Positions 6,584-24,497 of a DNA stretch of 24,518 nucleotides are shown piece after piece (positions within the stretch are counted from its first letter, which is position 1; every line of letters starts with the position of its first letter). Under the pieces are notes generated by a model. It was not told the origin of the DNA and did no database searches. It saw only the letters and a program-made list of their open reading frames with translations. The translations under genes were made by a program, and so were the position numbers. This DNA comes from a virus, in the IMG/VR virus record IMGVR_UViG_3300030104_003024, positions 1 through 24,518 of that record. One strand, written 5' to 3'.

Positions 6584-7759
6584 TCAGGACAAGTCCCGAA
6601 TACTCCCCTGTGCGCGGAAGAAGGTAGTCCACACTTCACCCATGGTTCGGTATAGCCCTTCCTGACCGAGACGGTTGATAGCGAATGGGTCGCCTGTCTC
6701 GATACCGGACTCGAAGTATTGAGTCGGGATTGCCGTGGAGAAGTATAGGTAGTCCGTGTCGAGGAAGTAAACTCGGCTGATGCCGTCCTTCTCAACGTCC
6801 TTCGATGGGATAATTGGGACACCGTTGTAGGTAGCGACGATGAAACCGGCTTCGATACCGGGAACACCCTTTACACCGTTGTAGGTTGGTGTAACGCGCT
6901 TCTCTTCCATGAATCGCTGCTGTGCCTGTAGCAACTGCTGTAGGCGCATTAGAGTATCATAGCCAGTGAGCATAACCTTGGGGTTGCCACCAAGTTCCCA
7001 CATGCGCTGGAAGACATCATCCAACTGGTCAAGGGAGAAAGTTCTCCTCTGCCCTGCTGCTCGGTCTGCACCGCAGTTCACGACAGCGTTGGACCATGAG
7101 TTTGCACTTCGGTCAATGCTGTAGATGTCGAGGTCGCTTGCACCACAGTGGTCAGTTCCCGGTGTTGCACCAGTTTCCATGGATGTTAGTCCACCAGAGG
7201 AGCCACCGTCGTTTCCAGTGATTCGGTCAAGGGACTCGAAGTTGTTTCCTGCGGCTGTCTCAGAGTCCGTTAGGAGCATCTTGTTGACCATCTCAGCATG
7301 GTGCTTACCCATCTCTTCCTTGAGGACAGAGCGGATGTCTCCCATACCATCGTCCTTGTCAGCAAGGAAGATAGCGACTTCACTCATGTCGAAGGAATGA
7401 GCGATGGTCTTAGGCTTTGCAGCCACGTGCTGGAAGACAGGCTTGACAGTGTCAGGAAGGACACCGTTCTCTGCAAGACCACCATGAAGAACACCAGCGT
7501 TAGGCTTCTCCGTGATGACGCGCCAACCGGAGCGGTCCCAAGGACGCTTAGGTAGGATTGAGAAAGCGTTGAACTCTTGGTTCAACTGGCTCCAGACCTT
7601 GCGGCCATAGATTGCCTGATAGGTTCCTGCGGTGGAGGAGAGCATTGGGCTGTCAGCCTTCAGCAACTCGCTGCCAGTGTAGGAATATCCCATTGCATTT
7701 CCGGCGCCATAGTAGTAGCGCTCCATGTCGGTAACTGTTCGAACGTAGTTTCGTGCCAT
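6584..7759 (-). CDS. Major capsid protein, HK97 fold
   Basis: 391 residues, close to the usual length of HK97-type capsid proteins. It follows the prohead protease-scaffold gene, the standard order. Visible features: an N-terminal region of about 70 residues with WSQLNQEFNAFSILPKRPW, an E-loop-like segment (WRVITEKPNAGVLHGGLAENG), a central helix (IRSVLKEEMGKHHAEMVNKM), and a C-terminal domain with NPKVMLTGYDTLMRLQQLL, GIEAGFIVATYNGVPIIPSK and the closing YFESGIETGDPFAINRLGQE. There is no long N-terminal delta domain as in HK97 itself, which fits a separately encoded scaffold. The start is fixed by GGAGATGATG before the ATG. The exact capsid family is not assigned; the role is clear from context and pattern. 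Confidence 0.88.
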   Translation of the reverse strand: MARNYVRTVTDMERYYYGAGNAMGYSYTGSELLKADSPMLSSTAGTYQAIYGRKVWSQLNQEFNAFSILPKRPWDRSGWRVITEKPNAGVLHGGLAENGVLPDTVKPVFQHVAAKPKTIAHSFDMSEVAIFLADKDDGMGDIRSVLKEEMGKHHAEMVNKMLLTDSETAAGNNFESLDRITGNDGGSSGGLTSMETGATPGTDHCGASDLDIYSIDRSANSWSNAVVNCGADRAAGQRRTFSLDQLDDVFQRMWELGGNPKVMLTGYDTLMRLQQLLQAQQRFMEEKRVTPTYNGVKGVPGIEAGFIVATYNGVPIIPSKDVEKDGISRVYFLDTDYLYFSTAIPTQYFESGIETGDPFAINRLGQEGLYRTMGEVWTTFFRAQGSIRDLS

Positions 7760-7791: not shown

Positions 7792-8613
7792 TCACTCGTC
7801 TCGGAAGACGCTCCCTGCGAGTTGGTGGACCTCGTCCCAAGACATGTTTGCAAGGTCAACCGTTGAAGGAACCTCGATGTTTGGGGAGGAATCGGACTTA
7901 GCAATAGGTGAACCAGATGCGCCAATGTTGTCAATGCGGTCGTTAAGAGCGTCAAGAGCCTTCATGACCTCACCGAGAGGACCGCGAGCATCGAACTCAG
8001 CAGCAGCAGCCTTCTGGACTTCAGCATGGCTTTCTTGCTGGAAGCGAGCCTCGAAGTGCTTCTCAAGGTCGCCCTTGTAAGCCTGCTCTGCGCGAGCAGC
8101 CTTGTAGACCTCGTATGCGGCTTCCAATTGGGAAGAATCCACAGCGTCAGCAGAGATGAAATCACTCTTCTCGACCTTAGCACCACCGCGAGTTAGACCA
8201 GCGCGGGAAAGAGCGTTAGTGGAGGGTGAGCCATTTTCTTGAGCGCGACCCTTTACCTGAGCAGCGAAGTAAGATGCACCGTCACCGATGGCTTCAGGAG
8301 TAGAACCAAGATTGTGCTTTGCTATATCATCGAAGTGAGCACGAGCACCTGCCGTGTCAACACCAGCGGACTTGAGGGTATGCTCCATCCAGTTGAGGTA
8401 TTCAGCAGTGATAACATCGGAGAACTCGGACTTTTCCTTGTCGTCCTTGTCGTCCTTGTCGTCCTTGTCTTCCTTCTCATCCTTGGATTCATCTTTCGAC
8501 TCCTTCTGAGCAGCAGCGAGTGCCGGTGGCAACTCTCCCTTCTCCATTGAGTCCAGTCGTCCTTCGAGGCGTTCGAGGACGCTACTCATTTGTTCCATTA
8601 CATCATCAGTCAT
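7792..8613 (-). CDS. Probable separate scaffold from an internal start
   Basis: Inside the protease gene, the ATG at 8613 (protease Met191) has AAGGTGAG four bases upstream. It falls exactly between the protease domain and the helical scaffold region, and would give a 273-residue protein starting MTDDVMEQMSSVLERLEGRL. The 17 bases GTGAGTAAAATGACTGA around it are identical to the start region of the separate gene at 19701. Nested scaffolds in frame with the protease are known from lambda-type heads (C and Nu3). Production of this shorter protein is inferred. Confidence 0.55.
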   Translation of the reverse strand: MTDDVMEQMSSVLERLEGRLDSMEKGELPPALAAAQKESKDESKDEKEDKDDKDDKDDKEKSEFSDVITAEYLNWMEHTLKSAGVDTAGARAHFDDIAKHNLGSTPEAIGDGASYFAAQVKGRAQENGSPSTNALSRAGLTRGGAKVEKSDFISADAVDSSQLEAAYEVYKAARAEQAYKGDLEKHFEARFQQESHAEVQKAAAAEFDARGPLGEVMKALDALNDRIDNIGASGSPIAKSDSSPNIEVPSTVDLANMSWDEVHQLAGSVFRDE

Positions 8614-9183
8614 TTTACTCACCTTGTTGTTATCCTTGTCTTCTTTTAGGATTCTAAATGTTGCTTCCGGGTTGATTCCCTTTTCGCAGATTGTTACTTC
8701 GTGAAGTTCGAGTTTCGAGATTTCTTGATAGGAGCCGTGTGTGTTATCGCTCTTGTTGACTCGCTTGAATGCTTGTCCTCCGATACTAAACCCACGTAGG
8801 TTTCCTTTTCGAACTTCCGCCGCTACCTCCCTTGCTTTTTCTATATCGTTTCTTAACTGGACTACAACAAACATTCCTGCGTCATCAACTTCGCTTTTCC
8901 ACATTCTCCCGTTGTTGTCTGTATAATTTGGAATTACTTCTCCTACTTGAATATTGGAATGTGCGAGTTGGACATTTCTAAACTTCGGGTCTGTCATGAA
9001 CTTCTTGAAGGCGTCCTTCAGAGCCGAGCGTGTAATCAAATCTCCCTGCTTGTCAACGAGTTCAACAGAGGCATATCCTGCGACGACGAGGTCAGACCCC
9101 GCCTTGAGGAGTTCAATGCCATGTTGTAGAGGTTGTCGAAGCACACTAATCCCAGCAAGGGGCCGTTCATCTATATGAACCAA
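7792..9183 (-). CDS. Prohead maturation protease fused to scaffold
   Basis: 463 residues. Residues 1-180 are an HK97-type prohead protease (peptidase U35-like): GYASVELVDKQGDLI, the His in QLAHSN (His75), the Ser in GFSIGG (Ser133), and LELHEVTIC near 158-166, the expected place for the third catalytic residue. It would cleave scaffold and itself during head maturation. Residues 191-463 are scaffold-like: a helix from MTDDVMEQM, a highly charged linker with repeated DDK units (about 225-251), Ala-rich helices, and the C-terminal MSWDEVHQLAG. The start is TTG at 9183, six bases after GGGGTGA, which also contains the stop of the preceding gene; no in-frame ATG lies nearby. Confidence 0.85.
   Translation of the reverse strand: MVHIDERPLAGISVLRQPLQHGIELLKAGSDLVVAGYASVELVDKQGDLITRSALKDAFKKFMTDPKFRNVQLAHSNIQVGEVIPNYTDNNGRMWKSEVDDAGMFVVVQLRNDIEKAREVAAEVRKGNLRGFSIGGQAFKRVNKSDNTHGSYQEISKLELHEVTICEKGINPEATFRILKEDKDNNKVSKMTDDVMEQMSSVLERLEGRLDSMEKGELPPALAAAQKESKDESKDEKEDKDDKDDKDDKEKSEFSDVITAEYLNWMEHTLKSAGVDTAGARAHFDDIAKHNLGSTPEAIGDGASYFAAQVKGRAQENGSPSTNALSRAGLTRGGAKVEKSDFISADAVDSSQLEAAYEVYKAARAEQAYKGDLEKHFEARFQQESHAEVQKAAAAEFDARGPLGEVMKALDALNDRIDNIGASGSPIAKSDSSPNIEVPSTVDLANMSWDEVHQLAGSVFRDE
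8440..8470 (-). repeat. 9-base tandem repeat encoding DDK units
   Basis: Consecutive copies of a 9-base unit (gtccttgtc on the plus strand) encode Asp-Asp-Lys repeats in the charged linker of the scaffold region. Such short repeats can change copy number by slippage without breaking the frame. Confidence 0.7.
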
Positions 9184-9189
9184 ACGCAG

Positions 9190-12100
9190 TCACCCCTGCG
9201 GTTCCTCAATCTCTGTTTCGTTGGACTGCTCTAAGATTTTGCGCTTTTTTCGGGCCGCTGGGTATTCCTCTTCAGGGTCTTCCGTTGGCCTCTCTAACAT
9301 GTCCCAATCAGGCTGTGTTTGCTCACCTTGAACCTCGGTTGGTCCACGAGGTGATTCAACACCGTCACCAAAAAGACCAACACCCTGAGCACTGGTTCGT
9401 CCAGTCATCTTTTCTTTACTGATTCGCTCAGTTAAGTCAGCAATTCGACTGAGCATGTCTGCCATCTTCTTCTGCTCTTCAGGCTTCAAGATGGTTTCAT
9501 CATCATCAGAATCAATGATTCCTGCTGACTCTTCCTCAGATGCTTCGCGGTCTTTTGGGTCAGTCATGCTCCTGACACGCTCTAACTTCTTGGAAATCAT
9601 GACACCTGCTACATCGTGCCAAATAGGACGAATGCTTTCAGCAAGTTGAATCGCATAGTCGGACTTCATCAGAGGAGAAAGCAGGGCTTGAGGCTCATGG
9701 ACCCAATATCCATTTCGAGTCATGGTCATCTTGTAGACCACATCATCAATACCATCAAAGGAAAGAGTCATCTTCTCATCAGCCATTTCGATGTCATAAT
9801 GCACAGGAATGATTGGATGTGACTTGGCAAGAAGGCTGAGAGATTCAAGGCTTGCTGGACTCTCTATACTACTACCCGCGCGTATAGTATTAGGGGTGAC
9901 ATCATAAATGAGGCGTCCTGAACGCTTCTTTTCCTTAACACCTGAAACCGAGACGCGAACAATATCTCCTTCTTCAAACGGTTTAGGACTCTTCACGGTC
10001 CCAACATCGAGGTATGTCTCCCCATCGAACTTCACCCCTCTGTTCCCAAGGTCATCCTCATCAACAGGCCCAGCACCAAGACGGTAGGTGAACGGACCTT
10101 TTCCGCGAACATCGAGAATTATGAGAGCGATGTCCTTGTTCCTCCTGAGCATAAACCACTTTGGATGTCTTCTCTCTCCCTTCATGTATGTGGATTTACC
10201 ATCACGGAGTAGAAGGCGGGGGTTTTCTTCGGACAATCTCTCCACGGCTGCTTCAAGACCTCCCTCATCAGTCACAACTGTATCATCGGGAGACGGAATG
10301 TGTGCGTTCTCATACGAATCAAACTGCCCACGAAGTAATTTCAACCGTTCAGGGGTGCTTAAATCACTGACATTTGTGCCATCATAGTCAAGAATATCGA
10401 AGATGTAAATGTGGTTTGGTCGCTTAATCGCGTCAACCACGAAATCCTTCTCTGTCAACTTTTTGAGATGCTTCTTTGTTCTACCCCGAATAGCAACATC
10501 ATCTGCGTTTGAATCATAAGCAGAAATATCATCCCCGTCACGAGTGATAATGATGCGCTGTCCTTCAGGATAAGCAGAAACAACCCAATCACCAGTAAAG
10601 CCACGGAACGAATCGAGATTTTTAACGGAGAAAAGACGGTGCATTGGGAGAAGAGGAGGCGGTCTTGCCTCATCTTCTTTGTAAAGTAAGTCAGGATTCA
10701 TCAGCGTCATCAGGTCTTCACTCCTCAAGATTATATCATCATTAGGCTGTTGACCCATCATGTTCGCACGAGAAATGTAATTCACAGTGCTGAGTGGTTG
10801 CCACTGTTGTTGACCCCATAAAGCAGCCTTTTCTTCACCATGTAGTTCCGCCATGATTCCGTGAGGGACACTGTGAAGCAACTCATCTTGGGTGTTGAAA
10901 CCAATGACTGGTTGACCATTTTCAATTTCCCAACCAACAGGTGAGCGACCCGGATAACCAAAATCCATGGCAGAGGTTGAACCCCACATATCCTGCACAG
11001 TGTGATGCTGCCCTGTTGTTGCTGGGCCAACGGGGAATGTGCCCCACCCTGCTTTTGTCACCGTTTTACTTGGATAGATTTGACCTTCCTCTTCCTCCCC
11101 GTGACTCACAATCAAATCATGAAGTGCTGAACGGATTCTATTTTTTGTAGCCTTGATGTTAGGATTTTTTGCGTTGCCTCTCTTTGCATTTCCATATACA
11201 CTCTCTTGTCTTTGTGACATTTCGACAGGCGTCAGTGGGATGTGAGTTAGATTGTTTATCTCACTCGCTTTCTGGTCACGGCGCATGATAGAAGGTATGA
11301 ATGAAAGAGGACGCTCGTAACGGTCCTTTAGTTCATTTGCCCTTTGTTTATCCTTCCCACGCTGTTGCTTTACAAAGTCAGTAAAAGCGTCTTGGTGGTT
11401 TTCAATTGAAGCATCGTGAAACGCCATGCTCCCCCTTGGAGTCAAAGGGACACCAGTGCTATGCACCGCAGAATTGGTCATGACTCTTACTGGACCAATA
11501 GTTCTTGCGTGGTCAAAAAGACGTTCTATCATGTCGTTGTGATACTCATCATTTGGAAGACCGAGATTTTGAAGAACAGTAATTGGGTTGCTCTCAGGAA
11601 GAACTTCAACACCAAATCGTTTTACGATATTCCCCACTCTTGCATGTGGGTCAATCATATCACCTTCAGAAGAGAAAATCTCACTCGCACTTTTTTGTTC
11701 GACTTCTTTCCCACCATATGAGTAAGTGAAAATACCATCTTGTGGGTCTGCCATTCTCAAAACTCGCCCAGCGTCTGCTAAGGCCCTTGCTGAAATACTC
11801 CAGAAACCAGTAGGGTTTTGTTCAGGGTCAGGCATCTTATCAGAAGGAACCGTGGCAAGTAATCGCTTTGCCATTTCAATGTGTGCAGCATTATCAGCAG
11901 CATCTTTATTATCTATATGCTTAAACTCTCTAAGTCGTTGTTTGTTAGTATACACATCACCGTATTGCTCAGAATGCTCATATTCTCGTAGGCTTTGCTC
12001 AATGGATTGGATTTCCTCGTGTCGTTCATCCATTATTTCAATGAGTTTGGGGTTTACCTCCCCTTGCTCTTTCATTTCTTCCAGTTTTCTCTCGTCTTCC

Positions 12101-15000
12101 TCTTGTAAAAGCATTAAACTCTCTATGTCACCTATTTTTGTTTCATAATCAAAGTCACCGGATAAATCTCTTGAGATTATACCTTGAAGACGGCCCGTAG
12201 AACTATCCGATTCTTCGGTGCCGGGGACATACAAAAAATCTTCTAAGTCGCCCCCTCCCCCTTTAAGACGCCCCATAGAACCCTTCCATTCCTTTGCATC
12301 TCTGACTTTATGGCTAAACGGATGCCGTCCTGTGTTCAGCATATTTACTGAAAGTATACCCTTTTCTTGAGGGTCATGAGGTGGCCTCATTCTACCAAGT
12401 TTTGTTGCATGTCTATGAGCGTGTCTTGACCTTCTTTTAGAATGACCAAACGGGTCAGTAGATGATTGATATGTATGAAGAGAATCACCAAGAGGACCAG
12501 ATATTACATTCCTATATTCATTGGCTTTACCCCCGAACTTTTCCTTTATTTTACCCTTGCTCATTGTCCTAATGATATTTGTATAGGGAGCAGCAAAGGA
12601 TGTGACACCATTACTAAACGTATTTTTTCTTGTTCTTCCTTTCGCAGAGGCTTTTCCATCCCTGAAACCATGCGGTCTACTCGCATCTTTAGCACTTAAC
12701 ACTCCAGCCGGGTCAACATCGAGAGGCGCTCTCTTATCGTGAAACATAGGACTCAAGAAACCAGTAAGACCTGTGTGGTTTTCATTTGCTGTGAAAAAAG
12801 CATCATCGAAATCTTCATTCCCGATATGAGAAAATCCATCCTCGTCTTTCGGGTGATGACCATGCAAAAAATGAAGAAATGCAGAAGGTGACCTACCAAA
12901 CCCACCGCTCTCATGAAACGGGTCAGAAAAAAATGATGCTAATCCCTTGAGTGTTTTTCCATCATCAGTCACGTATAACCCACGCTCATTTTCAGGAACA
13001 TCTGTTGCTCTATACCCGTCATGACCACGTAAATGCCTCTGTGCAGAGTTCCTTACTCTCTTGTGGTCACGAGAACGGTCAGCCAGTGAAAGAGCACGTT
13101 GGCGAACATTATTGAAATCCTCTGCGCTCATAAGAGGAGTATCAGGATGGTGGTCTTTTTTGGCCTCAAAGGGATTTAGATTTTTATCCAAACCAACAAG
13201 TTCGAGTAACTGTTTTTCATTAATCTCGTTTTCACCTCCCATTTGAGATTCTTCTAATTCCTTGTAATATGCTTCTTTGTATGAGATGTCTTCATCCTCT
13301 GCACGCTGCCTTGCGTTTGCTGCGGTTTTGTTGTTAATTCTCGGAATATACTTCAACTCATCTAAAGTGAGAGGTTCATACTCATCCTCGTCTTCATCAA
13401 ACTCATCTGCATATGTTTCTTGCATTTTTTCACTGAGTGGTTTGTGTAACTTTCTATTGAGTTCACCGAGAATAAAATCATGCATAGTTCCTCCAGTGGG
13501 ATGGTTAGTTTTCTTCAACGCCTCGTAAAAAGCAGCACCGTCAAGTGCTTCTGTCGCTTTGGGAACATCCGTTTCACTTTCATAGTGAGCATTTACATTC
13601 CCACCATGTGTATTTTGACCACGGTGAAACCATTCATATTCAGAATTAACGCGTTGCTTAAGGTCACGAGCAATCCGACCAGCAGATGTATAAGTCCCAT
13701 CACCGAGAGAAATCATCTGATTATCTGGATGTTTAGTATCCTTTTCATAGAGATGCTTAGCGACCATATAACGCTGCGCTGGTGTCATGAACTCTAAACC
13801 ATGTCTAAAGCCGTTGTATGACATTTTCTTAGGAAAATGTATAGGTTCAGGTGCATCACGAGGGACATCCTCCCCTCTCATAAAAGCCATCTCTCTTTCA
13901 ATCCGCTCTTCATCAGTTTCACCAATGTAAGGCTCAGGGTGAATCTCATCAGAAAACCAATCTTTTGCACGAGATTCAAAATGCTGTTTTCTTAACTCAA
14001 AATCCTGCTTTGCATCATCTTCAGGAAACATCTCTGATACTTTTGTTGCAGCATTAGGATTTTCAGCCTTCCAACGCTCAAAATCAGTCATGTATATACT
14101 GTGAGGTGAAATGTCATGATGGCGACCAGCAAAAGGTTGACGAGATTCATTTGTCTTTTCTTGCGCTAATTCTTCAATGGCTTGCTGACCAAAAAATGCT
14201 CGCTTCATTTTTTCAAACTCTTTCTTTTTCGCCTTTTTTTCTTCATCAGTTGAATCAGGCATTTCTTCAATATCATAAAACAATGTCTCTTTTGCTAAAT
14301 CATCAGTGTTCTCATAGATTTCGTTAATCCTCTGTTGAATCTTTTTTTCTGACGTTCCCTCAACTGTTCCTGAGACAAAGGGATTTTCCTGACTGATGTC
14401 ATGTTTGTCTTGCGCCTTTTCGATTTCAGCGTGGATTTCGCTATTGCTTTGAGCACCGGGTTCTGAAGGGAGATAAAAACGTCTTAATGTTTCAATCCAA
14501 CGGGGTTCACCAGTAATAGTATTAACACGCTTATGTGGATGAACAACTGGACTGAACGGGTGTATGTTGTGATAATGGTCGTAACCAGCCTCTCCTACAA
14601 CATCAATATCCTCTGTAAAAATCTGCTCAAGAGGACGCTCAATAACTCGGTCAAACCAGTGATGCTCGCCATCATGCATCATCTCTGATACTCTTGTAAG
14701 GTGTTCATTTAACAACTGCACTTCAGAAAGTTCTGCGTCACTTCGCTTTTGTTTTCCTTTCTTTTGATGGCGTCGGCTTAATGGTTTAAATTGTCTTTGC
14801 TCCGATGGAATCTCTTCTTTCAGAATAGAGATAGTCAAGTGGTCTTCCCACGATTTGACAAAATCATCACCCTGACGGGAGACATTTAGGACCGAAAAGT
14901 AATGGTCAGCAACGGCGTTATGATAATCAATGCCGTCAACTACAGCCTTGAGAAGATTACCTCGTGTCCTTAGATAGACATCGAAAGCATCTTCTCGCAC
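9190..15000 (-). CDS. Giant head-cluster protein with degenerate DNA-ligase-like domain
   Basis: 1936 residues, GTG start six bases after GGTGA. Residues 1 to about 1400 match nothing I recognise: charged, mainly helical, with an acidic stretch near 533 (DEFDEDEDEYE), a His/Arg-rich stretch near 853 (HSKRRSRHAHRHATKLGR) and a coiled coil around 953-1015. Residues about 1455-1710 resemble the nucleotidyltransferase and OB-fold domains of ATP-dependent DNA ligases: motif I position YPEGQR (1477-1482), motif IIIa FDILDYDG (from 1534), a motif IV-V region RDGKSTYMKGERRHPKW (1599-1615) and an OB-like DVGTVKSPKPFEEGDIVRVS. The catalytic Lys of motif I is Tyr1477, and motif IV-V lysines are Arg or Met, so ligation is unlikely. 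The C-terminus is charged and disordered. Location between scaffold-type genes suggests an internal or ejected head protein; that is inference. Confidence 0.75.
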   Translation of the reverse strand: MREDAFDVYLRTRGNLLKAVVDGIDYHNAVADHYFSVLNVSRQGDDFVKSWEDHLTISILKEEIPSEQRQFKPLSRRHQKKGKQKRSDAELSEVQLLNEHLTRVSEMMHDGEHHWFDRVIERPLEQIFTEDIDVVGEAGYDHYHNIHPFSPVVHPHKRVNTITGEPRWIETLRRFYLPSEPGAQSNSEIHAEIEKAQDKHDISQENPFVSGTVEGTSEKKIQQRINEIYENTDDLAKETLFYDIEEMPDSTDEEKKAKKKEFEKMKRAFFGQQAIEELAQEKTNESRQPFAGRHHDISPHSIYMTDFERWKAENPNAATKVSEMFPEDDAKQDFELRKQHFESRAKDWFSDEIHPEPYIGETDEERIEREMAFMRGEDVPRDAPEPIHFPKKMSYNGFRHGLEFMTPAQRYMVAKHLYEKDTKHPDNQMISLGDGTYTSAGRIARDLKQRVNSEYEWFHRGQNTHGGNVNAHYESETDVPKATEALDGAAFYEALKKTNHPTGGTMHDFILGELNRKLHKPLSEKMQETYADEFDEDEDEYEPLTLDELKYIPRINNKTAANARQRAEDEDISYKEAYYKELEESQMGGENEINEKQLLELVGLDKNLNPFEAKKDHHPDTPLMSAEDFNNVRQRALSLADRSRDHKRVRNSAQRHLRGHDGYRATDVPENERGLYVTDDGKTLKGLASFFSDPFHESGGFGRSPSAFLHFLHGHHPKDEDGFSHIGNEDFDDAFFTANENHTGLTGFLSPMFHDKRAPLDVDPAGVLSAKDASRPHGFRDGKASAKGRTRKNTFSNGVTSFAAPYTNIIRTMSKGKIKEKFGGKANEYRNVISGPLGDSLHTYQSSTDPFGHSKRRSRHAHRHATKLGRMRPPHDPQEKGILSVNMLNTGRHPFSHKVRDAKEWKGSMGRLKGGGGDLEDFLYVPGTEESDSSTGRLQGIISRDLSGDFDYETKIGDIESLMLLQEEDERKLEEMKEQGEVNPKLIEIMDERHEEIQSIEQSLREYEHSEQYGDVYTNKQRLREFKHIDNKDAADNAAHIEMAKRLLATVPSDKMPDPEQNPTGFWSISARALADAGRVLRMADPQDGIFTYSYGGKEVEQKSASEIFSSEGDMIDPHARVGNIVKRFGVEVLPESNPITVLQNLGLPNDEYHNDMIERLFDHARTIGPVRVMTNSAVHSTGVPLTPRGSMAFHDASIENHQDAFTDFVKQQRGKDKQRANELKDRYERPLSFIPSIMRRDQKASEINNLTHIPLTPVEMSQRQESVYGNAKRGNAKNPNIKATKNRIRSALHDLIVSHGEEEEGQIYPSKTVTKAGWGTFPVGPATTGQHHTVQDMWGSTSAMDFGYPGRSPVGWEIENGQPVIGFNTQDELLHSVPHGIMAELHGEEKAALWGQQQWQPLSTVNYISRANMMGQQPNDDIILRSEDLMTLMNPDLLYKEDEARPPPLLPMHRLFSVKNLDSFRGFTGDWVVSAYPEGQRIIITRDGDDISAYDSNADDVAIRGRTKKHLKKLTEKDFVVDAIKRPNHIYIFDILDYDGTNVSDLSTPERLKLLRGQFDSYENAHIPSPDDTVVTDEGGLEAAVERLSEENPRLLLRDGKSTYMKGERRHPKWFMLRRNKDIALIILDVRGKGPFTYRLGAGPVDEDDLGNRGVKFDGETYLDVGTVKSPKPFEEGDIVRVSVSGVKEKKRSGRLIYDVTPNTIRAGSSIESPASLESLSLLAKSHPIIPVHYDIEMADEKMTLSFDGIDDVVYKMTMTRNGYWVHEPQALLSPLMKSDYAIQLAESIRPIWHDVAGVMISKKLERVRSMTDPKDREASEEESAGIIDSDDDETILKPEEQKKMADMLSRIADLTERISKEKMTGRTSAQGVGLFGDGVESPRGPTEVQGEQTQPDWDMLERPTEDPEEEYPAARKKRKILEQSNETEIEEPQG

Positions 15001-15006
15001 ACTTCT

Positions 15007-15684
15007 TCACCCCAGCATGCTACGCATCTTACTGAGGATTCCGTCTACAACTTGTCGGTCGGCGCCGCCACCGTCGTGAGGATTCAACTGACCAGACAAC
15101 TTGTCCATAGAAACTGATTCAGATGTTGCGCCTTTGTTAGCAACATCTTCTCCACCGTATAGATACTGATTGGTTGTGTAGTAAGCACTGCGTGTCTGTC
15201 CACCGCTCTCAGCCATGAACATGACTCCGCTGGGGTTAGAGTCAAAAGATGTTTCAAAACCCGGTTGGGTTCCTGCTTCGGACTTCTCTACATCCATCTT
15301 TCCACCGCATCCCATTTTCATGCATCCCATCTTGTTCTTCTCTTCGCCACATTCAGGGCATATTTTGTTACCCTTATCTACGTCCATTTTACCACCGCAT
15401 CCCATTTTCATGCAACCCATCTTGTATCCCATCTTATCCATTTTCTCACCACAAGTTGGACACTTTTCATCACACTTGCAGTCATGACCCTTTCCTTCAC
15501 ATTCAGGGCAATCTTTTGCTTTTGCCTTCTCATCTTTAGCACCTTTACCATCAGCGGCAAAAGCAGGAACTTTCTTCCCTTCATGTTCTACCATGTCTAA
15601 TTTCTCAGCCTTTTCAAAAAGACGTTGAGCCTTGTGAAGAAGAGTCATTGCATCTCTACTAACTGGGGACGGAATTGGACGCAT
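15007..15684 (-). CDS. Cys-rich protein with duplicated metal-binding-like repeat
   Basis: 225 residues. The N-terminal 35 residues form a helix (DAMTLLHKAQRLFEKAEKLD). Residues 59-126 contain twelve Cys: CPEC, CKC, CPTC and CPEC pairs plus two copies of MGCMKMGCGGKMDV at 89-102 and 119-132. This looks like zinc-ribbon or DnaJ-like metal binding; the Met-rich repeats could also bind soft metals. The C-terminal 90 residues are low in charge, with SAYYTTNQYLYGGED, and end in VDGILSKMRSMLG. GAGGTG lies nine bases before the ATG, in the preceding gene's end. Function unknown; it sits in the head cluster. Confidence 0.7.
   Translation of the reverse strand: MRPIPSPVSRDAMTLLHKAQRLFEKAEKLDMVEHEGKKVPAFAADGKGAKDEKAKAKDCPECEGKGHDCKCDEKCPTCGEKMDKMGYKMGCMKMGCGGKMDVDKGNKICPECGEEKNKMGCMKMGCGGKMDVEKSEAGTQPGFETSFDSNPSGVMFMAESGGQTRSAYYTTNQYLYGGEDVANKGATSESVSMDKLSGQLNPHDGGGADRQVVDGILSKMRSMLG
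15288..15425 (-). repeat. Two 48-base direct repeats in the Cys-rich gene
   Basis: 15288-15335 and 15378-15425 match at about 44 of 48 positions by eye and are offset by exactly 90 bases (30 codons). They encode the two MGCMKMGCGGKMDV copies and reflect an in-frame duplication. Confidence 0.85.
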
Positions 15685-16416: not shown

Positions 16417-18156
16417 TTACGCTCCGCGAGGTCTTCGCGCATTCTGCATTGCGTCACTATTCAACTGTCCTTGGGTGGGGGGAGGACCACGTTGTTGAAC
16501 GCTTGTAATAGGTGAACCTGCTCCGGGTGTGCCACGTTGCTGAGGTCTTGCGGGGCTTCTCGGTGTGCGTATTCCTTGCCCTTCACCACCCGGTTGTGAT
16601 GGAGGCATTATTCCGCCCGGAGGACCACCTCTCATCGGCATTCCACCCGGAGGCATTCCACCCGGAGGCATTCCACCCGGAGGCATTCCACCCGGAGGCA
16701 TTCCACCCGGAGGCATTCCGCCGGGAGGTTGTGCTCCTTCCTCTTGCTGACGATATACAAAGCGGATGTCTCGGTCACCCTCTTCCAAGAGTTCAGGTTG
16801 ATAACCCAGCATCTGCATTCTCTGTGCCAAGTTTACTTCCATCTCATCACGACGGAGTCGAGTAATTTCATCCTCTTCTTCATTTGGATATAACGTCAAT
16901 TTCCAATCAGTAATACTCATTTCCTTAAGCAAACGAGGGAATAGATTCTCTGTGTAGACCTTCTGACCAAACTCAACAGCACGATTAGTTACAAGAATCT
17001 GCAAACCTTCGTTGTTAAGTCCACCAGATTTACCGTTGTCAATCATAAAGATGCTCGATACACCATAGAATGCAGCGATACGATTTCTAATCTCATCACG
17101 GACAGAGATATACTGCATCTCTTCAAGTGTATCCATGAACTTGACCCAGTTCACAGCACCTCGTCCTGATTGAGATTCGATACCGACTTTAGGAATGTAA
17201 TGCGGGTCACGCTCCATTTTCTCATCAACGCCCTTCCAAAAGGACTTCATGGACTCAAGATTATCCGTTGTGACAGAAATGATACCCTTCGGAATCCGCC
17301 TCTTCTGATAGGCTGTATACATGTAATTGTCCATTGCAGTAAGCGTCATTGCCTGACGCCACATCGTATTGACGGGGGAAGTCCCATACAACTTAGATGG
17401 ATTATACTTACTGATATGAATGACTTCACCCTTCGTGTAATACTGATTCTTTCCAGAGCCTGACATGTTCACGTAGTGAGCGTCAACAAGACGGGAGCCA
17501 CATACTTGACATGCTGGCTCTTGGCCGGGATAAGCAACTTGGTCACGATGAATACGACAAATCTTGTATCGCCCACCGCGAACACCACGCTTATCAGCAA
17601 TAATACGCATGAATATCGGGTCACCACGGATAATTTGCTTCACTCGGAAGAACTGAACATCACCCGACTCAGGGTCTACATAATATTCCTTGATAAGAAT
17701 CAAAAATGCATCATCTACAATGTTGAGGTCGCGCTCGACTTCAAACAATACTTCCATGAAACTCTGCTCCATGGCATTCTGTTCTTCGAGTAACCAACGA
17801 CCATAAATGACCTGTTCAGGGTCCGGGTCGCGAACCTCTCCACCGCAGGTCTTACACATTTCAACTTCATGTTGGTATTCTTCCCCACACTCAGTGCACT
17901 TCTTGCGGAACTTCTTCTCCCAATAGTATCCTCTTCTGAAAACCTCTTGACTTAACTTAGATAAGACAGTTCTAAGAATTAGATTCTCATTTGAAACGGC
18001 AAATAAAGCAGGAATAGTGATACCTTGTGCGAGAACAGGCTCTTGGATACCTGTCGTATAGAGAGGCATCTGAGGTTCAGGAGTTGTGCGACGCCTGAAT
18101 GGACTGGCGAGAGCCGACAAGAATCGGCTAACTGGATTTCGGTCACCTTCTGCCAT
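16417..18156 (-). CDS. Portal protein with two zinc-ribbon-like insertions
   Basis: 579 residues. Portal assignment rests on length, position between terminase and capsid genes, and the segment YNPSKLYGTSPVNTMWRQAM followed by a long helix and KRRIPKGIISV, typical of portals; the later helices (YISVRDEIRNRIAAFYGVSS and NNEGLQILVTNRAVEFGQKV) fit the stem and wing. The portal ring is the DNA channel and docks the terminase. Two Cys clusters are unusual: Cys87, 90, 101 and 104, and Cys200, His203, Cys216 and Cys219. The C-terminal 100 residues are Pro/Gly-rich, with six PPGGM units. The ATG at 18156 has GGAGGG six bases upstream and overlaps the preceding stop (TGATG); an in-frame GTG just before it is less well placed. 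Confidence 0.88.
   Translation of the reverse strand: MAEGDRNPVSRFLSALASPFRRRTTPEPQMPLYTTGIQEPVLAQGITIPALFAVSNENLILRTVLSKLSQEVFRRGYYWEKKFRKKCTECGEEYQHEVEMCKTCGGEVRDPDPEQVIYGRWLLEEQNAMEQSFMEVLFEVERDLNIVDDAFLILIKEYYVDPESGDVQFFRVKQIIRGDPIFMRIIADKRGVRGGRYKICRIHRDQVAYPGQEPACQVCGSRLVDAHYVNMSGSGKNQYYTKGEVIHISKYNPSKLYGTSPVNTMWRQAMTLTAMDNYMYTAYQKRRIPKGIISVTTDNLESMKSFWKGVDEKMERDPHYIPKVGIESQSGRGAVNWVKFMDTLEEMQYISVRDEIRNRIAAFYGVSSIFMIDNGKSGGLNNEGLQILVTNRAVEFGQKVYTENLFPRLLKEMSITDWKLTLYPNEEEDEITRLRRDEMEVNLAQRMQMLGYQPELLEEGDRDIRFVYRQQEEGAQPPGGMPPGGMPPGGMPPGGMPPGGMPPGGMPMRGGPPGGIMPPSQPGGEGQGIRTPRSPARPQQRGTPGAGSPITSVQQRGPPPTQGQLNSDAMQNARRPRGA
16639..16728 (-). repeat. Six 15-base tandem repeats encoding PPGGM
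   Basis: Five identical copies of a 15-base unit and one variant copy (CCGCCGGG form) lie end to end near the 3' end of the portal gene. They encode a flexible PPGGM repeat at about residues 477-506. The near-perfect nucleotide identity indicates recent expansion. Confidence 0.9.
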
Positions 18157-19367
18157 CACAGACCCTCCTCATACTTACCAATTGTATTAGCATCAATACC
18201 CCAACCCTCAAGCAATTCAGTGGCCTTTCGAGCATCATCCTTCCAGTTATTGTATCTCACGACACGCTTTATCTCTTCCTTCCGAACCTTATCGTCTTCT
18301 TCTATGAAGGCGAGCACAGCCTTCGCCTGAACATCCTTCATGCGTAAGTGAGGAAGCACTCCCGTTAGGAGTTTGCGGATGTCAGCCTTTGAATAGAACT
18401 GAAGGCGGTGCTGACTTCTCTGAGAGTCCTTGTAGACCTTATTATCGAGTTGAAGAATACCACAACCCAGCGTTTTATGGAGATTCTCACAGTGAACTCT
18501 ACCCCTATCACCAGTAGCAATGAATCCAGCACGAGGCTCACCACGACCAGTGATTGTGATATAACCGTCTGCATCAAGGAAGCCAGCACTATATGCCCAT
18601 GGGTCTTTGAGAACAAGGCCCTCGGAGTCGAGAACAACGTAAGTTCCACGCTTTGCGCCCTTAATGATGTCAACTTCTTCACCATACATATTGAGAAGTC
18701 GGGCCAACTTCTTATCAGTGAATGACTTTCTCATCAATCCCGCTTCACTTAGATTTCTACGAATCTCAGTGGACTTCATCGGACCTCTTTCATTTAGTTG
18801 TAAAGCGGCAAAAGAAAGAAAATCCTGCTCATGCTTAGTGAGGGCATCAATCTGATGTAGGCTATTTTTCCACATCTTCTTCGCATCACTTCTCGTAGAC
18901 ATGGCTGTAGCCCATGCGCGTTGCTCTTCTTCTCCCCATACATCCTCAAACTCATCGAGCATTTTGAGAGCAGTTTCTGCACTTTTCCACATATTACACG
19001 CCTGTTGAAGAGATACTGAGCGGCTTTCCCCGAACTTGCGTAAACTCTTCAGGTCACGGTCACTAAGTCCTAATTGTTTGATGACATCAGCATTCTCAGC
19101 ACCCCAAGTGAGTGAATTGATTGTCACTTCAGTTTCTAACGCTTTCATGACACGTATGTCAGAAATAATGGCATCAATTTCATCACGACTATCCTTATTT
19201 CGTCTTCGCATCTTACGCAATCTCTTCACGAGATTACCCGCAGAACACCCTAACTTAGCCTCAAACCAACCATCACCATTAGCAAATAGATTCTTGGTAG
19301 GTTCAGCCTTGATGATTACTTCAGGAACTTCGACTTCGAAGGATTCGATAAGCGCAGACCCCCACAT
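18156..19367 (-). CDS. LAGLIDADG endonuclease-like protein with long N-terminal region
   Basis: 403 residues. Residues 258-365 carry one LAGLIDADG motif, SAGFLDADGYITI (260-272, acidic Asp267), followed by a matching fold (RAGFIATGDRGRV, LQFYSKADIRKLLTGVLPHL), so a homodimeric homing-endonuclease-type domain is likely. Residues about 175-245 look like a winged helix (FLSFAALQLNERGP, STEIRRNLSEAG, LLNMYGEEVDIIKGAKRGTY). The first 170 residues are helical and basic, of unknown type. It is a complete free-standing gene with GAGGTC before the ATG and an overlapping portal start, with no sign of interrupting another gene. It may be a homing gene, or a domesticated DNA-binding protein used in packaging or regulation. 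Confidence 0.75.
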   Translation of the reverse strand: MWGSALIESFEVEVPEVIIKAEPTKNLFANGDGWFEAKLGCSAGNLVKRLRKMRRRNKDSRDEIDAIISDIRVMKALETEVTINSLTWGAENADVIKQLGLSDRDLKSLRKFGESRSVSLQQACNMWKSAETALKMLDEFEDVWGEEEQRAWATAMSTRSDAKKMWKNSLHQIDALTKHEQDFLSFAALQLNERGPMKSTEIRRNLSEAGLMRKSFTDKKLARLLNMYGEEVDIIKGAKRGTYVVLDSEGLVLKDPWAYSAGFLDADGYITITGRGEPRAGFIATGDRGRVHCENLHKTLGCGILQLDNKVYKDSQRSQHRLQFYSKADIRKLLTGVLPHLRMKDVQAKAVLAFIEEDDKVRKEEIKRVVRYNNWKDDARKATELLEGWGIDANTIGKYEEGL

Positions 19368-20289: not shown

Positions 20290-21956
20290 CAGTTCCACCT
20301 CTTTAGCGCTGCACCTTTTGGTGTGAGTTTACCTTTCTTCGATGTCGGTCCTTTAGAACCTGACATACGAGCGCAGAATGACTTACGGCGTTTGGCCTTC
20401 TTAGAACCGGGCTTGAGTTTACTCGGCTTCGTAGTTACAGGTGGTTTGAGGTTTGCGCCAGTTTCACGCTTGAACTTAGCCCTTCCTTTAGCACTTAGCC
20501 CACCTTTCTTATGATGACGCTTTGGATTATATCCATGAAACGGTTTGGACTTCTTCTTGGCTTTTATAACAGCCCAAGCAAGTTCACTGGGGCTACAACA
20601 ATCACAGAAATCAACATTAGACAAATCACCTTTGAGAATGTCAGATAAAGCATCATCATCTTCACTTCTTTGAATTATCCCTTCTGCACCACGTTTTTGT
20701 TGCACTGTATACTTTTGTGGTCGCTGCATTGTTCTACCATAGTTAGGATTCCTCCGCATACCACGTGGGATTTTTTCATACCGTTGGCCTTCATGTGTTA
20801 TAATTTCATTATTAGGGTCAAGTGGTTTAACAAAACTGTATGGTAATTCACGATAACTAAAAACAGGTATACGTTCAGGTTCATCTGCGAATTGTGGGTC
20901 AGGGATATCTACTGGGCGACTCGGTTTTGAACCATGCAAAGGATGGAGCCTTGGTCTAATATTAGGAGAATCTCCCTCAATACCTTGGAGACGATTTAAC
21001 TCTCTTTCTTCAGGGTCAAGACGAAGTTCCATATGAGGGTCTTCAAAGGGTATTTCTCCGTCAATCGTCATTCTTTGATTATATCCTGTCATTGGGTTTT
21101 CCACTCCTTGGGACATTATTCCAAATGCTTCATTAGGTAATGATGCATAATCCACAGGAGGTTCTACTTCTGAGATAGGAACCATTGACAAACTCTTAAC
21201 TTTTGAAGGCGGTGGTAACTGTTTCCCAGCGTCAGTAACACCCATGTCTAATACTTGAGGTGAAATACGACCCCTTGGGAAATCTTGTTGAGAAGCGGGA
21301 AGAAATGATGATACTGTATTCATGAAAGGTTGTGAAAGGTCAATAGGTCCACGCCGGTCTGACCACTTGTGTTCTGTGCGAGAAGGAGAAGAAGGGTCAA
21401 CCCTTCCCGCAGCCTTGAGTAAACGCCAAGACAAGTCCATCGCTTCTCCGGTTTGCACACGCCCTGTCATACGGTCAGAGAAGAACTTAGACGGGTCATC
21501 GCGACGAAGTTCAGCAAGGCTTTCTTGCCCTTGTGCAACTTGACGGCGATGTTTTTCCATTTGTCGCATCAAACGCATGAAGTTCTCACGCTCGGTAGGG
21601 TCATATTCACTGGGATTTTGTCGCATATCCATAAAATCAGGAGATTGAAGTCCCTCATCATAGAGAGAGGTTGACATCTGCTCGTCTCCGGGTGAGAGAG
21701 CCTGAGCAGCCTGAGCAGCCACTTCGCGTCCCGGTGTTTCCTGACCTAACATATTTGCAGTTGATTGGAAGCGACGGGCAGTCGGGAAATCACGAGCACC
21801 GCGTAGTGACTCGGCTTCTTGTTGGAGTTCTTCGATACTGGCTTTCTTCTTAGTATCAGGGTCAGCCTCTCGCTCAGGTTTCTTACCACCGGGCTTACCC
21901 ACTGAGATAACAACGACCATGCCTTTGGGCTTCTTTCCAACTTTTTCTTCTTTCAT
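20286..21956 (-). CDS. Accessory protein with conserved basic C-terminal module
   Basis: 556 residues from the ATG at 21956, which overlaps the terminase stop as ATGA; an ATG four codons earlier is less likely. The N-terminus has KGMVVVISVGKPGGKKP followed by a helical charged region. The middle is Pro-rich and probably disordered. Two short motifs are notable: MDLSWRLLK (173-181) and SELAWAVIK (457-465), the latter just after CDCC. Residues 465-556 form a very basic module (KRHHKKGGLSAKGRAKFKRE, NLKPPV, AKRRKSFCARMSGSKGP, ending LKRWNC) that is conserved in many phages and marine viruses and that I believe corresponds to DUF6321. Its function is unknown. Position after terminase suggests packaging or virion association. 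Confidence 0.7.
   Translation of the reverse strand: MKEEKVGKKPKGMVVVISVGKPGGKKPEREADPDTKKKASIEELQQEAESLRGARDFPTARRFQSTANMLGQETPGREVAAQAAQALSPGDEQMSTSLYDEGLQSPDFMDMRQNPSEYDPTERENFMRLMRQMEKHRRQVAQGQESLAELRRDDPSKFFSDRMTGRVQTGEAMDLSWRLLKAAGRVDPSSPSRTEHKWSDRRGPIDLSQPFMNTVSSFLPASQQDFPRGRISPQVLDMGVTDAGKQLPPPSKVKSLSMVPISEVEPPVDYASLPNEAFGIMSQGVENPMTGYNQRMTIDGEIPFEDPHMELRLDPEERELNRLQGIEGDSPNIRPRLHPLHGSKPSRPVDIPDPQFADEPERIPVFSYRELPYSFVKPLDPNNEIITHEGQRYEKIPRGMRRNPNYGRTMQRPQKYTVQQKRGAEGIIQRSEDDDALSDILKGDLSNVDFCDCCSPSELAWAVIKAKKKSKPFHGYNPKRHHKKGGLSAKGRAKFKRETGANLKPPVTTKPSKLKPGSKKAKRRKSFCARMSGSKGPTSKKGKLTPKGAALKRWNC
20550..20593 (-). other. LAW..IK motif copy in the 556-residue protein
   Basis: Encodes SPSELAWAVIKAKK just after a CDCC cluster. 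Similar short helices occur at 21414-21440 (MDLSWRLLK, same protein), in the 62-residue protein (GPMTLAWDSLEKK) and in the 133-residue protein (PLEMAWQVLKE). Confidence 0.5.
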
Positions 21957-23431
21957 GGAATCACCCAACCACTCTTGGCCCCACCACTCATGTAATCATC
22001 AAAGCCGGGAAGGTAGTCATCAAGAAGCATGACTGAACCACGGAACTCTTTGGTTCCCCAGTTAGCAAGAGCGAGAGCCATTGCCAAGTCGTCATGCGTT
22101 CCCACACTCTCAAGCCTCCCATTTTTCTGCATACCGAAACGATTCAATTCTTCTTCCAACTTGTGAGTGAACGTCTTACTTCTCTCGTCTCCATACGGCG
22201 TGCGTATCTGCCCTTGTTCAAAAGCCAGCAGCAGGGACATGAAGAGGCTTTCCTTTCTTGTCTTAGTTGTCATAAAGGTTCGAATCGGAATATCGTCACG
22301 TATTTCTTTCAACTCCATGGCGAACATTCTCTGGAAATTGTTACCCTCAAGTTCAATGAGGTCAGGTTTGAACTTGTTATTGAGAATAATGATTTGGCGC
22401 TTCTGAGCCATAGAAGACATTCCTTTCTCGTGAATGATGTTGACAATCTGCTTCTCGTTTTCACCGGGTGGAGTGCGAAGAGTAAGCATGGCTGTAAAGT
22501 CAGCATTCTTATCAGAAGCAATCGCTGTATCCCAGCCAATAAAATGCTGGCCGAACACACCGGCAGGCTCCCCGTCTTCGTTGTATTCCATTTCTGCCCG
22601 GTCAAGAAGAACAAGATTCGTGTCACGTGCTCTCTCAAGAATATCCGACGGGAACATACTGGCAACGTCGTGAATTGGTTCACACAGATACTCACGAGTA
22701 AACTGAATTGCTGGCATAGACCGGCGACGCTCTTCGAGTGAATCTAAGTCCCAACGCTCAGGCCACAATGCTATACCTTCAGCATTAATCGCAGGATATG
22801 TTTCGACAACGAACGTGTCCTTCTGTTCAAGTTCCGCATACAGGTCATTGTATGAGAACGGAGTTCCGACCATCATTAGACGCGCACTATGGTGAAGAAC
22901 AGGAAGCAGAACACCATAGAACCAATCGGCTGCTCGCTGTAACTCTCCACCTGTTGTGCCCCACAGAATATCGTCACACACAACCACATCAGGATGGAAA
23001 CCACGAGTTGCTCCACCGACCGACTTTGCCATGATACGACTGCCGTTTGTGAACTCAAAATAGGACTTAGCCCACGGTTTACCGGTAGGTCGAAGATGAC
23101 GAAGGCAAGGAGTGGTGTCAATACAATTTCTAATGAAACGCATGTGTTCGAGTGTCTGCTCCAATGAGTGAGAGAAAACCATGATGTGTGTGCCGGGCTT
23201 AAACGCAGCAATCCACAACGCATAGGCCATGAACAGAGTGGATTTACCATGGTCACGGGATGCTTTTACGCAATAGTAGCGGTTGTGGGTCAAACCTTCA
23301 TCCCATAATTGGTGGTGATGTGAGTAATGAAAACCAAGGATTGACTCAAAGAAAAAACGGAATGAGCGAGAAGCCATCTTCCCATCCATCTCGATGATGA
23401 GTTGCTTGGTCTGTTCATTATCATCTGACAC
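21953..23431 (-). CDS. terL: Terminase large subunit
   Basis: 492 residues. It is the packaging motor ATPase and nuclease that docks on the portal. Numbered from the chosen GTG: Walker A ASRDHGKST (57-65), Walker B DVVVCDD (148-154), coupling motif MMVGTPFSYNDL (about 187), and a C-terminal RNase H-type nuclease with Asp301 in IGWDTAIASDKNADF, Glu360/362 in LIELEGNN and Asp447/448 in GTHDDLAMA. All expected residues are present. The open frame extends to 23548, but GGAGGT at 23446-23441 is nine bases before GTG 23431 and six before TTG 23434, so one of these is the real start. The start overlaps the preceding gene by about 11 bases. Confidence 0.92.
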   Translation of the reverse strand: MSDDNEQTKQLIIEMDGKMASRSFRFFFESILGFHYSHHHQLWDEGLTHNRYYCVKASRDHGKSTLFMAYALWIAAFKPGTHIMVFSHSLEQTLEHMRFIRNCIDTTPCLRHLRPTGKPWAKSYFEFTNGSRIMAKSVGGATRGFHPDVVVCDDILWGTTGGELQRAADWFYGVLLPVLHHSARLMMVGTPFSYNDLYAELEQKDTFVVETYPAINAEGIALWPERWDLDSLEERRRSMPAIQFTREYLCEPIHDVASMFPSDILERARDTNLVLLDRAEMEYNEDGEPAGVFGQHFIGWDTAIASDKNADFTAMLTLRTPPGENEKQIVNIIHEKGMSSMAQKRQIIILNNKFKPDLIELEGNNFQRMFAMELKEIRDDIPIRTFMTTKTRKESLFMSLLLAFEQGQIRTPYGDERSKTFTHKLEEELNRFGMQKNGRLESVGTHDDLAMALALANWGTKEFRGSVMLLDDYLPGFDDYMSGGAKSGWVIP

Positions 23432-24497
23432 CAATGAAAGACCTCCTGTTACCTTTATTGGTGTCGTCAGACCATTCAATATCGTTCCAATTATCCAAAG
23501 TTGATTGAACCATTTTCTTTTCTTCATTAGTAAGAGCCTTATGGTCATTCATGGCTTCATCAGAAACATGACTTTGTTCAGCCATGTGTTGTGGCACTCC
23601 ACCGCCCAATGCGTTTTGCGCTTCCACAATTTCTTGGGAAGATAATGACTGCGCCGTCGTAGGTGGTGCTACAGTAGGTGGTGCTACAGTAGGTGGTGCT
23701 ACAGATTGCGTCGTAGCACCTGTATCAAACCCTTCAAAATCGTCTAATTTTGTTGGTTTTGGTGTCTCAACCGTCGGGGAGGAGGTCGAAGCGGAAGAAA
23801 CCCCGACGGTTGGACTTATTTTTGCAGCGCCTCGCATTCCGAGGCTTTGTAGAGTTGGATTTGCATAACGATATGTGGAATAACCTTGAGCGCCTGCGCC
23901 CCCAAGTGCACTGATGAGGTCTGTGCCTGATTCATTGGCTCTTTGAAGCGCCATCAAACCGGTAAGTCCAGCGAGCGCACCTGCTCCAATCTTACCAGCG
24001 AGTGCACCACGCCCAGTTCTTCGTAGTGCTTCTTCAAAAGCAGCCTGTGAATTACCACCGCTCTGTGCCATTTGACGAGAAAGGGCTTCTTGTAAAGACA
24101 TATCTGCTTGCCTTTTTTGTTGAGCAGTGTCAAACTTTGCCCTTTCTCTTTCTTGTTTTGCTTCAAACTTACGTGCTCTATTTTCTGCCCAAGCATCGCG
24201 CTCAACTCCTACCATTTGGTTAATTCTTTTTGGGTCATGTCCCAAACGCCTAAGTTGTGCTTTAGCATCATCATCTGTTTCTAAGTTGGACGAAAATACA
24301 TTAGCAGATTGAAAATCTCCTTCAGAACCAAATACACCATATGGATTTACTTCTGGTTTGAAAGTTGGTCTTTCATATTGAATTGGTCCTTGTGCTCTTA
24401 ATCGAAGTCCAGTTCTTGGGTCTACTTCTTTTTGGGGTAGTGGGACAAATGCAAGTGGAGAGATACTACTCATAGCACTTGGTGCTCCAGAAGCCAT
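23421..24497 (-). CDS. Coiled-coil protein upstream of terminase, function unknown
   Basis: 358 residues from the ATG at 24497, which has GGAGGT seven bases upstream (24510-24505); in-frame ATGs at 24503 and 24515 are poorly placed, but the frame stays open to the window edge. Order of parts: a low-complexity N-terminus, a charged helix (residues about 100-150, AENRARKFEAKQERERAKFD), a Gly/Ala-rich hydrophobic segment (ALAGKIGAGALAGLTGLMAL) that could be a membrane or packing helix, a Pro/Thr region with three APPTV repeats, and a polar C-terminus. It sits where a small terminase often lies, but I see no helix-turn-helix. A virion or membrane-active protein is an alternative. Confidence 0.6.
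   Translation of the reverse strand: MASGAPSAMSSISPLAFVPLPQKEVDPRTGLRLRAQGPIQYERPTFKPEVNPYGVFGSEGDFQSANVFSSNLETDDDAKAQLRRLGHDPKRINQMVGVERDAWAENRARKFEAKQERERAKFDTAQQKRQADMSLQEALSRQMAQSGGNSQAAFEEALRRTGRGALAGKIGAGALAGLTGLMALQRANESGTDLISALGGAGAQGYSTYRYANPTLQSLGMRGAAKISPTVGVSSASTSSPTVETPKPTKLDDFEGFDTGATTQSVAPPTVAPPTVAPPTTAQSLSSQEIVEAQNALGGGVPQHMAEQSHVSDEAMNDHKALTNEEKKMVQSTLDNWNDIEWSDDTNKGNRRSFIGVR
23659..23703 (-). repeat. Three perfect 15-base tandem repeats
   Basis: Three identical copies of gtaggtggtgctaca (plus strand) encode the VAPPT repeats in the coiled-coil protein. Identity at third codon positions points to recent expansion. Confidence 0.9.
23768..23812. repeat. 12-base perfect inverted repeat inside a gene
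   Basis: caaccgtcgggg at 23768-23779 and ccccgacggttg at 23801-23812 are perfect reverse complements separated by 21 bases, forming a G+C-rich stem in DNA or in the transcript. Both arms encode PTV in the Pro/Thr region (SPTVGV and SPTVET). No T run follows, so it is not a normal terminator. Confidence 0.8.

What the first reader, a model, noticed from the sequence alone, without database searches (positions are those of the whole stretch)
9870..10640. Ligase-fold domain without catalytic lysine in a giant head-cluster protein
Residues about 1455-1710 of the 1936-residue protein follow the order of an ATP-dependent DNA ligase core: motif I site, FDILDYDG, a K/R-x-Y-x-x-G-x-R...W motif IV-V region, then an OB-like domain. 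The motif I consensus KxDGxR reads YPEGQR (Lys to Tyr, Asp to Glu), motif IV reads PRLLLR instead of EGxxxK, and motif V reads WFMLR instead of WxKxK. A catalytically dead ligase used as a DNA-end or nick-binding domain in a virion protein would be new to me. It could hold the genome end or inspect packaged DNA.
Basis: partly seen in the sequence, partly recalled or inferred. Interest (0 to 1): 0.75.

Follow-up and report, generated by a model that had tools for sequence, protein, structure and literature searches.

The report
Dead DNA-ligase domain in giant virus protein
A giant, about 1,900-residue protein made from the head-building gene block of a large group of marine archaeal tailed viruses carries a DNA-ligase-shaped domain that has lost its catalytic residues in every relative examined yet is the most strictly preserved part of the protein, so it probably now works as a binding or docking part rather than as an enzyme.

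Summary
Residues ~1440-1712 of the 1936-aa protein have the ATP-dependent DNA ligase core (nucleotidyltransferase plus OB): Pfam DNA_ligase_A_M in 12/12 giants, profile-profile E 4e-8 against archaeal ligases (shuffled controls nil), Foldseek top 50 all ligases or capping enzyme. In 119 distinct relatives the motif I lysine site is never Lys (W/Y/F/L); motif III Glu and both motif V Lys are gone in all, motif IV Glu-Gly in all. A Lys one residue upstream occurs in 78/119 only. Three giants have the whole OB domain deleted. Yet this is the most conserved part of the giant (dN/dS 0.02-0.05 against 0.2-0.4 elsewhere), fixed between portal and protease/MCP (130/131, 167/167, 144/144). The viruses look like Magrovirales (marine group II archaea). 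No other ATP-ligase hit was found in 36 large contigs, so the 'ATP-dependent DNA ligase' credited to magroviruses may be this dead domain (inference). DNA-end or nick binding and presence in the virion are untested; OB loss and a hydrophobic plug at the AMP site speak against ligase-style DNA clamping. Best reading: a non-catalytic docking module in head assembly or packaging.

The parts
9190..15000 (-). giant head-cluster ORF, 1936 aa; in 110 distinct full-length relatives 1800-2038 aa
12901..15000 (-). N-terminal ~700 residues: mostly helical region, well predicted, no known fold
   Evidence: AlphaFold mean pLDDT 81.7; no PDB or BFVD match at E<=0.001
10135..10683 (-). ligase nucleotidyltransferase-like half, residues 1440-1622
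10555..10578 (-). degenerate motif I, SAYPEGQR (1475-1482); canonical Lys site is Y1477
10426..10434 (-). degenerate motif III, D1523-A-I1525 in place of D/E-G-E
10396..10401 (-). motif IIIa F1534-D1535; Phe not conserved, Asp invariant in the family
10144..10221 (-). motif IV-V region 1594-1619 with family signature RD..STYM.GE.RHPKW..LR in place of EGhhxK...WhKhK
9865..10134 (-). OB-like domain 1623-1712; cleanly absent in three relatives
9571..9864 (-). accessory C-terminal domain 1713-1810 (strands then helices)
   Evidence: conserved, predicted with low confidence
9193..9570 (-). conserved acidic tail with SPRGPT and PDxDMxxRPxED motifs (1811-1936)
16417..18159 (-). portal protein (context)
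   Evidence: upstream of the giant in 130/131 loci
15007..15684 (-). conserved Cys-rich 225-aa protein ending 6 nt before the giant (context)
   Evidence: 138/138 loci, sequence
7792..9183 (-). prohead protease (context)
   Evidence: directly downstream in 167/167 loci
6584..7759 (-). HK97-type major capsid protein (context), 33% identical to HVTV-1
   Evidence: 144/144 loci
21953..23548 (-). terminase large subunit (context)

Best explanation
The C-terminal part of the giant protein is a pseudo-ligase: a domain descended from an archaeal-type ATP-dependent DNA ligase core that can no longer form the lysyl-adenylate and has been kept as a non-catalytic binding module. Shown by computation: ligase fold, family-wide loss of the residues needed for adenylation, very strong purifying selection, and a fixed place between portal and protease in the head gene block. 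Inferred: the protein is made late with the head proteins, sits in the procapsid or at the portal vertex, and uses the conserved RD..STYM.GE.RHPKW face of the nucleotidyltransferase half to dock onto a partner (portal, protease, capsid or DNA) during assembly or packaging; the long helical N-terminal part provides the scaffold. I think a protein partner somewhat more likely than DNA.
For: Fold. Catalytic loss: in 119 distinct sequences 0 Lys at motif I, 0 Glu at motif III, 0 Lys at either motif V site; 88 keep none of six catalytic residues, 30 keep one, 1 keeps two, while 17/17 canonical controls read K[YF]DGxR. More distant relatives (33-47%) also lack it. Selection: dN/dS 0.016-0.086 in the domain against 0.19-0.41 in the upstream rest of the giant; the domain and tail hold most invariant residues. 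Context: the giant starts 6 nt after its neighbour on the portal-protease-MCP strand, synteny fixed, length fixed. OB domain dispensable in one group of relatives.
Against: No data on expression, virion presence, binding partner or activity. The AlphaFold model is of moderate confidence and its coordinates could not be inspected, so the position of the off-by-one Lys in 78/119 relatives was judged from sequence alone. Conserved basic residues and the head context leave DNA binding open.
Confidence: 0.6

Rival explanations
1. DNA-end or nick-holding clamp in the head: the dead ligase grips the packaged end or inspects DNA for nicks without sealing them.
For: Ancestral fold binds nicked DNA; invariant Arg, His and Lys in the motif IV-V hairpin; the gene lies between portal and protease. 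Catalytic point mutants of yeast ligase IV still act structurally at breaks (PMC3694833).
Confidence: 0.25
2. Ejected cargo or effector: the giant is packaged and delivered into the host with the DNA, and the ligase-like domain acts there, for example by binding a host replication or repair partner.
For: In the related haloviruses HVTV-1, HCTV-1 and HCTV-5 the same stretch between portal and protease holds long proteins with zeta-toxin and ADP-ribosyltransferase domains and a Mu gpF-like protein.
Against: No sequence homology between the giant and those proteins in profile-profile search; those slots vary between viruses, whereas this domain is near-invariant, unusual for an effector.
Confidence: 0.15
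3. Active nucleotidyltransferase with a shifted nucleophile (the Lys one residue upstream, or the invariant Lys1614 of HPKW).
For: Lys at position 1476 in 78/119 relatives; Lys1614 invariant in 121/121.
Against: Position 1476 is A, I, S, V, T, G, H, L or M elsewhere, including this window; the profile alignment puts W/Y/F/L on the nucleophile site; motif III Glu, motif IV Glu-Gly and motif V Lys are gone even where the upstream Lys is present; OB missing in some.
Confidence: 0.05

Closest known systems
Archaeal/eukaryotic ATP-dependent DNA ligase (Pfam DNA_ligase_A_M, Thermococcus ligases 6wbo, 4eq5)
   Same: Nucleotidyltransferase fold plus OB domain in the same order; upstream P-M element, motif I Gly and Arg, IIIa Asp, STYxxG...W positions
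   Different: Motif I Lys, III Glu, IV Glu-Gly, V Lys-Lys lost; about 30 residues between III and IIIa deleted; no ligase DNA-binding domain detected in front; embedded near the end of a 1,900-residue viral protein
Snurportin-1 m3G-cap-binding domain (dead guanylyltransferase fold used for binding)
   Same: A nucleotidyltransferase fold without catalysis used as a binding module; Pfam SPN1_m3Gcap_bd appears as a weak hit in 3 of 12 giants. The shared fold of snurportin and capping enzyme is general knowledge (Strasser et al. 2005, listed in PMC5396385)
   Different: Weak match only (best E 0.03); eukaryotic transport protein, no sequence relation shown
Magrovirus 'ATP-dependent DNA ligase' of published annotations (PMC10768690, PMC12999244, PMC10160649)
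   Same: Same virus group by gene content; here the only ligase-like gene in large contigs is this giant
   Different: Literature lists it as a replication enzyme; the domain found here lacks catalytic residues. Whether those annotations refer to this gene could not be checked because the records are not held
Halovirus head-cluster proteins HVTV-1 gp113-115 and equivalents
   Same: Long proteins in the same genomic slot between portal and protease/MCP
   Different: Zeta-toxin, ADP-ribosyltransferase and gpF-like domains, no ligase; no profile similarity

Membership tests
ATP-dependent DNA ligase | nucleotidyltransferase fold | tested here: met
ATP-dependent DNA ligase | OB-fold domain after motif V | tested here: met
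   Present in this window; deleted in three relatives
ATP-dependent DNA ligase | motif I KxDGxR nucleophile lysine | tested here: not met
   0 of 119 distinct relatives; 17/17 canonical controls positive
ATP-dependent DNA ligase | motif III Glu (DGE), motif IV Glu-Gly, motif V two Lys | tested here: not met
   III Glu 0/119; V Lys 0/119; Glu at the motif IV site 18/119 but Gly not among the residues seen next to it
ATP-dependent DNA ligase | auto-adenylation and nick sealing | not testable with these tools
   needs purified protein
Magrovirales (virus assignment) | family B DNA polymerase, portal, protease, terminase and halovirus-like HK97 capsid protein on 80-110 kb marine contigs | tested here: met
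   PolB in 12/12 large relatives; head genes; MCP 33% to HVTV-1
Magrovirales (virus assignment) | direct match to a classified member (ON649702, OR863078) | tested here: inconclusive
   records not held
Virion structural protein | detected in particles | not testable with these tools
   no proteomics for these viruses; only gene position supports it

The most novel reading that the evidence does not exclude
Across the magroviruses a replication enzyme was captured, killed and fixed as an essential non-catalytic part of head assembly or genome packaging, and the DNA ligase credited to these viruses' self-sufficient replisome does not exist: they must use the host's ligase.
Probability: 0.4. Interest if true: 0.75.

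Novelty: new variant of a known kind. Interest (0 to 1): 0.6.

Why it matters
Pseudoenzymes made from DNA ligases are hardly known, and none in a viral head gene block was found in the papers searched. Magroviruses are among the most abundant ocean viruses (PMC10160649), so a widespread giant protein with a near-invariant dead ligase core points to an unrecognised step in their assembly. It also questions the published statement that these viruses carry their own ATP-dependent ligase. The domain is small enough to express and test.

Tried and rejected
(1) Fusion or readthrough between giant and protease: same frame in this window, but not in most relatives, so rejected. (2) Relation to halovirus zeta-toxin/ADP-ribosyltransferase or gpF-like proteins: no convincing BLAST or profile match. 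(3) Separate real ligase elsewhere in the genomes: Pfam PF01068 in 36 contigs of 50 kb or more (and some smaller), a canonical archaeal ligase profile, NAD ligase and RNA ligase families in subsets: nothing outside the giant. (4) Known fold for the N-terminal 700 residues: none in PDB or BFVD. (5) Relatives in phage records or cellular genomes: none. (6) Charge as a hint for DNA binding: not informative, several canonical ligase cores are also near neutral. (7) Literature on inactive DNA ligase domains in virions: nothing relevant found.

Full report
What is there. The window is a 24.5-kb virus record with one strand of head genes: terminase, HNH-like protein, portal, three small genes, the giant ORF 9190-15000, prohead protease, major capsid protein. 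The giant is 1936 aa. The cited coordinates and motif spellings are right.

Is it a ligase fold. Pfam gives DNA_ligase_A_M at E 1.1e-4 for this protein, and the same family is the commonest hit, in 12 of 12 diverse giants. A profile of 14 relatives finds archaeal DNA ligase 4eq5 at E 5e-5. Profile-profile comparison with 17 canonical archaeal ligases gives prob 95, E 4e-8 over 260 columns; 60 column shuffles reach at most prob 1.3 and no other segment of the giant scores above 0.7. An AlphaFold model (mean pLDDT 67; mostly 76-88 over residues 41-170 of the construct) searched against the PDB returns DNA ligases or ligase complexes in all top 50 places but one, which is mRNA guanylyltransferase; best E 1.4e-10, probability 1.0. 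TM-scores stay near 0.3, which I put down to domain orientation and model quality.

Is it dead. I collected relatives from viral contigs: 271 stretches matched in the last scan, 176 loci were read, 120 distinct. At the site aligned with the ligase lysine there is W (78), Y (16), F (13) or L (12), never K. Motif III Glu is I/V/T/A/L; motif V lysines are L/V/M/I and R; motif IV Glu-Gly is lost; motif IV Lys is R in 116. Of six catalytic residues 88 sequences keep none, 30 one, one two. A Lys one residue upstream occurs in 78 of 119; the register of the profile alignment suggests that it points to the other face of the strand, but I could not inspect coordinates. More distant members also lack the lysine. 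In three of these (G032, G033, G036) the OB domain is missing exactly, in frame, with the nucleotidyltransferase half and the tail kept.

Is it under selection. In near pairs dN/dS is 0.016 and 0.052 in the domain against 0.19-0.41 in the parts upstream; in two more distant pairs 0.06-0.09 against about 0.2 (simple Nei-Gojobori counts). Conservation rises sharply at residue 1441 and most invariant residues of the giant lie from there on.

Where it sits. Protease follows directly in 167/167 loci, capsid protein in 144/144, portal precedes in 130/131. Giants are 1800-2038 aa in 110 distinct full-length copies (copies above 1700 aa were selected). The first 700 residues are predicted as a mostly helical region (pLDDT 82) without known relatives.

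Which viruses. Large relatives carry family B DNA polymerase in 12/12 and this virus has a capsid protein 33% identical to HVTV-1, as described for Magrovirales, viruses of marine group II archaea (PMC10768690, PMC10160649). Classified members are not held, so the assignment rests on gene content. In the 36 contigs of 50 kb or more searched with PF01068, hits lie only in the giant; a canonical ligase profile, NAD ligase and RNA ligase families in subsets find nothing else. Two of the four contigs without a PF01068 hit still hold the giant by its own profile. The ICTV profiles of Aoguangviridae and Apasviridae list an ATP-dependent DNA ligase; I infer, without proof, that this may be the dead domain.

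How it may work. By sequence the adenylate pocket is filled with hydrophobic residues while a face around RD..STYM.GE.RHPKW is invariant or nearly so. I read this as a docking surface used in head assembly or packaging. DNA binding is possible; loss of the OB domain in some relatives argues against ligase-like encirclement. Snurportin-1 is a known case, from general knowledge, of a nucleotidyltransferase fold used only for binding.

Noticed in passing
window 16417-18159: The portal protein carries a zinc-ribbon-like CxxC...CxxC motif near residues 86-106; both CxxC pairs are present in 130 of 130 relatives.
   Followed up: partly
window 15007-15684: Cys-rich 225-aa protein with repeated MGCMKMGCGGKMD segments, conserved upstream of the giant in 138/138 loci.
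   Followed up: no
window ~9147-9189 and same place in relatives: Short conserved intergenic stretch after the giant (GCCGCTTTATTTATGTAGG-like), possibly an archaeal TATA promoter for the protease-capsid genes; a loose TATA pattern fits 67 of 176.
   Followed up: partly
G032, G033, G036 (L386-L388): Giants of 1718-1812 aa with an exact in-frame loss of the OB domain.
   Followed up: partly
L041, L220, L221 (HVTV-1, HCTV-1, HCTV-5): The halovirus slot between portal and protease holds zeta-toxin, ADP-ribosyltransferase, sialidase and ParB-nuclease-like proteins, as if a variable cargo site.
   Followed up: no
window 18156-19367: 403-aa protein with an HNH-endonuclease PHROG match directly upstream of the portal.
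   Followed up: no
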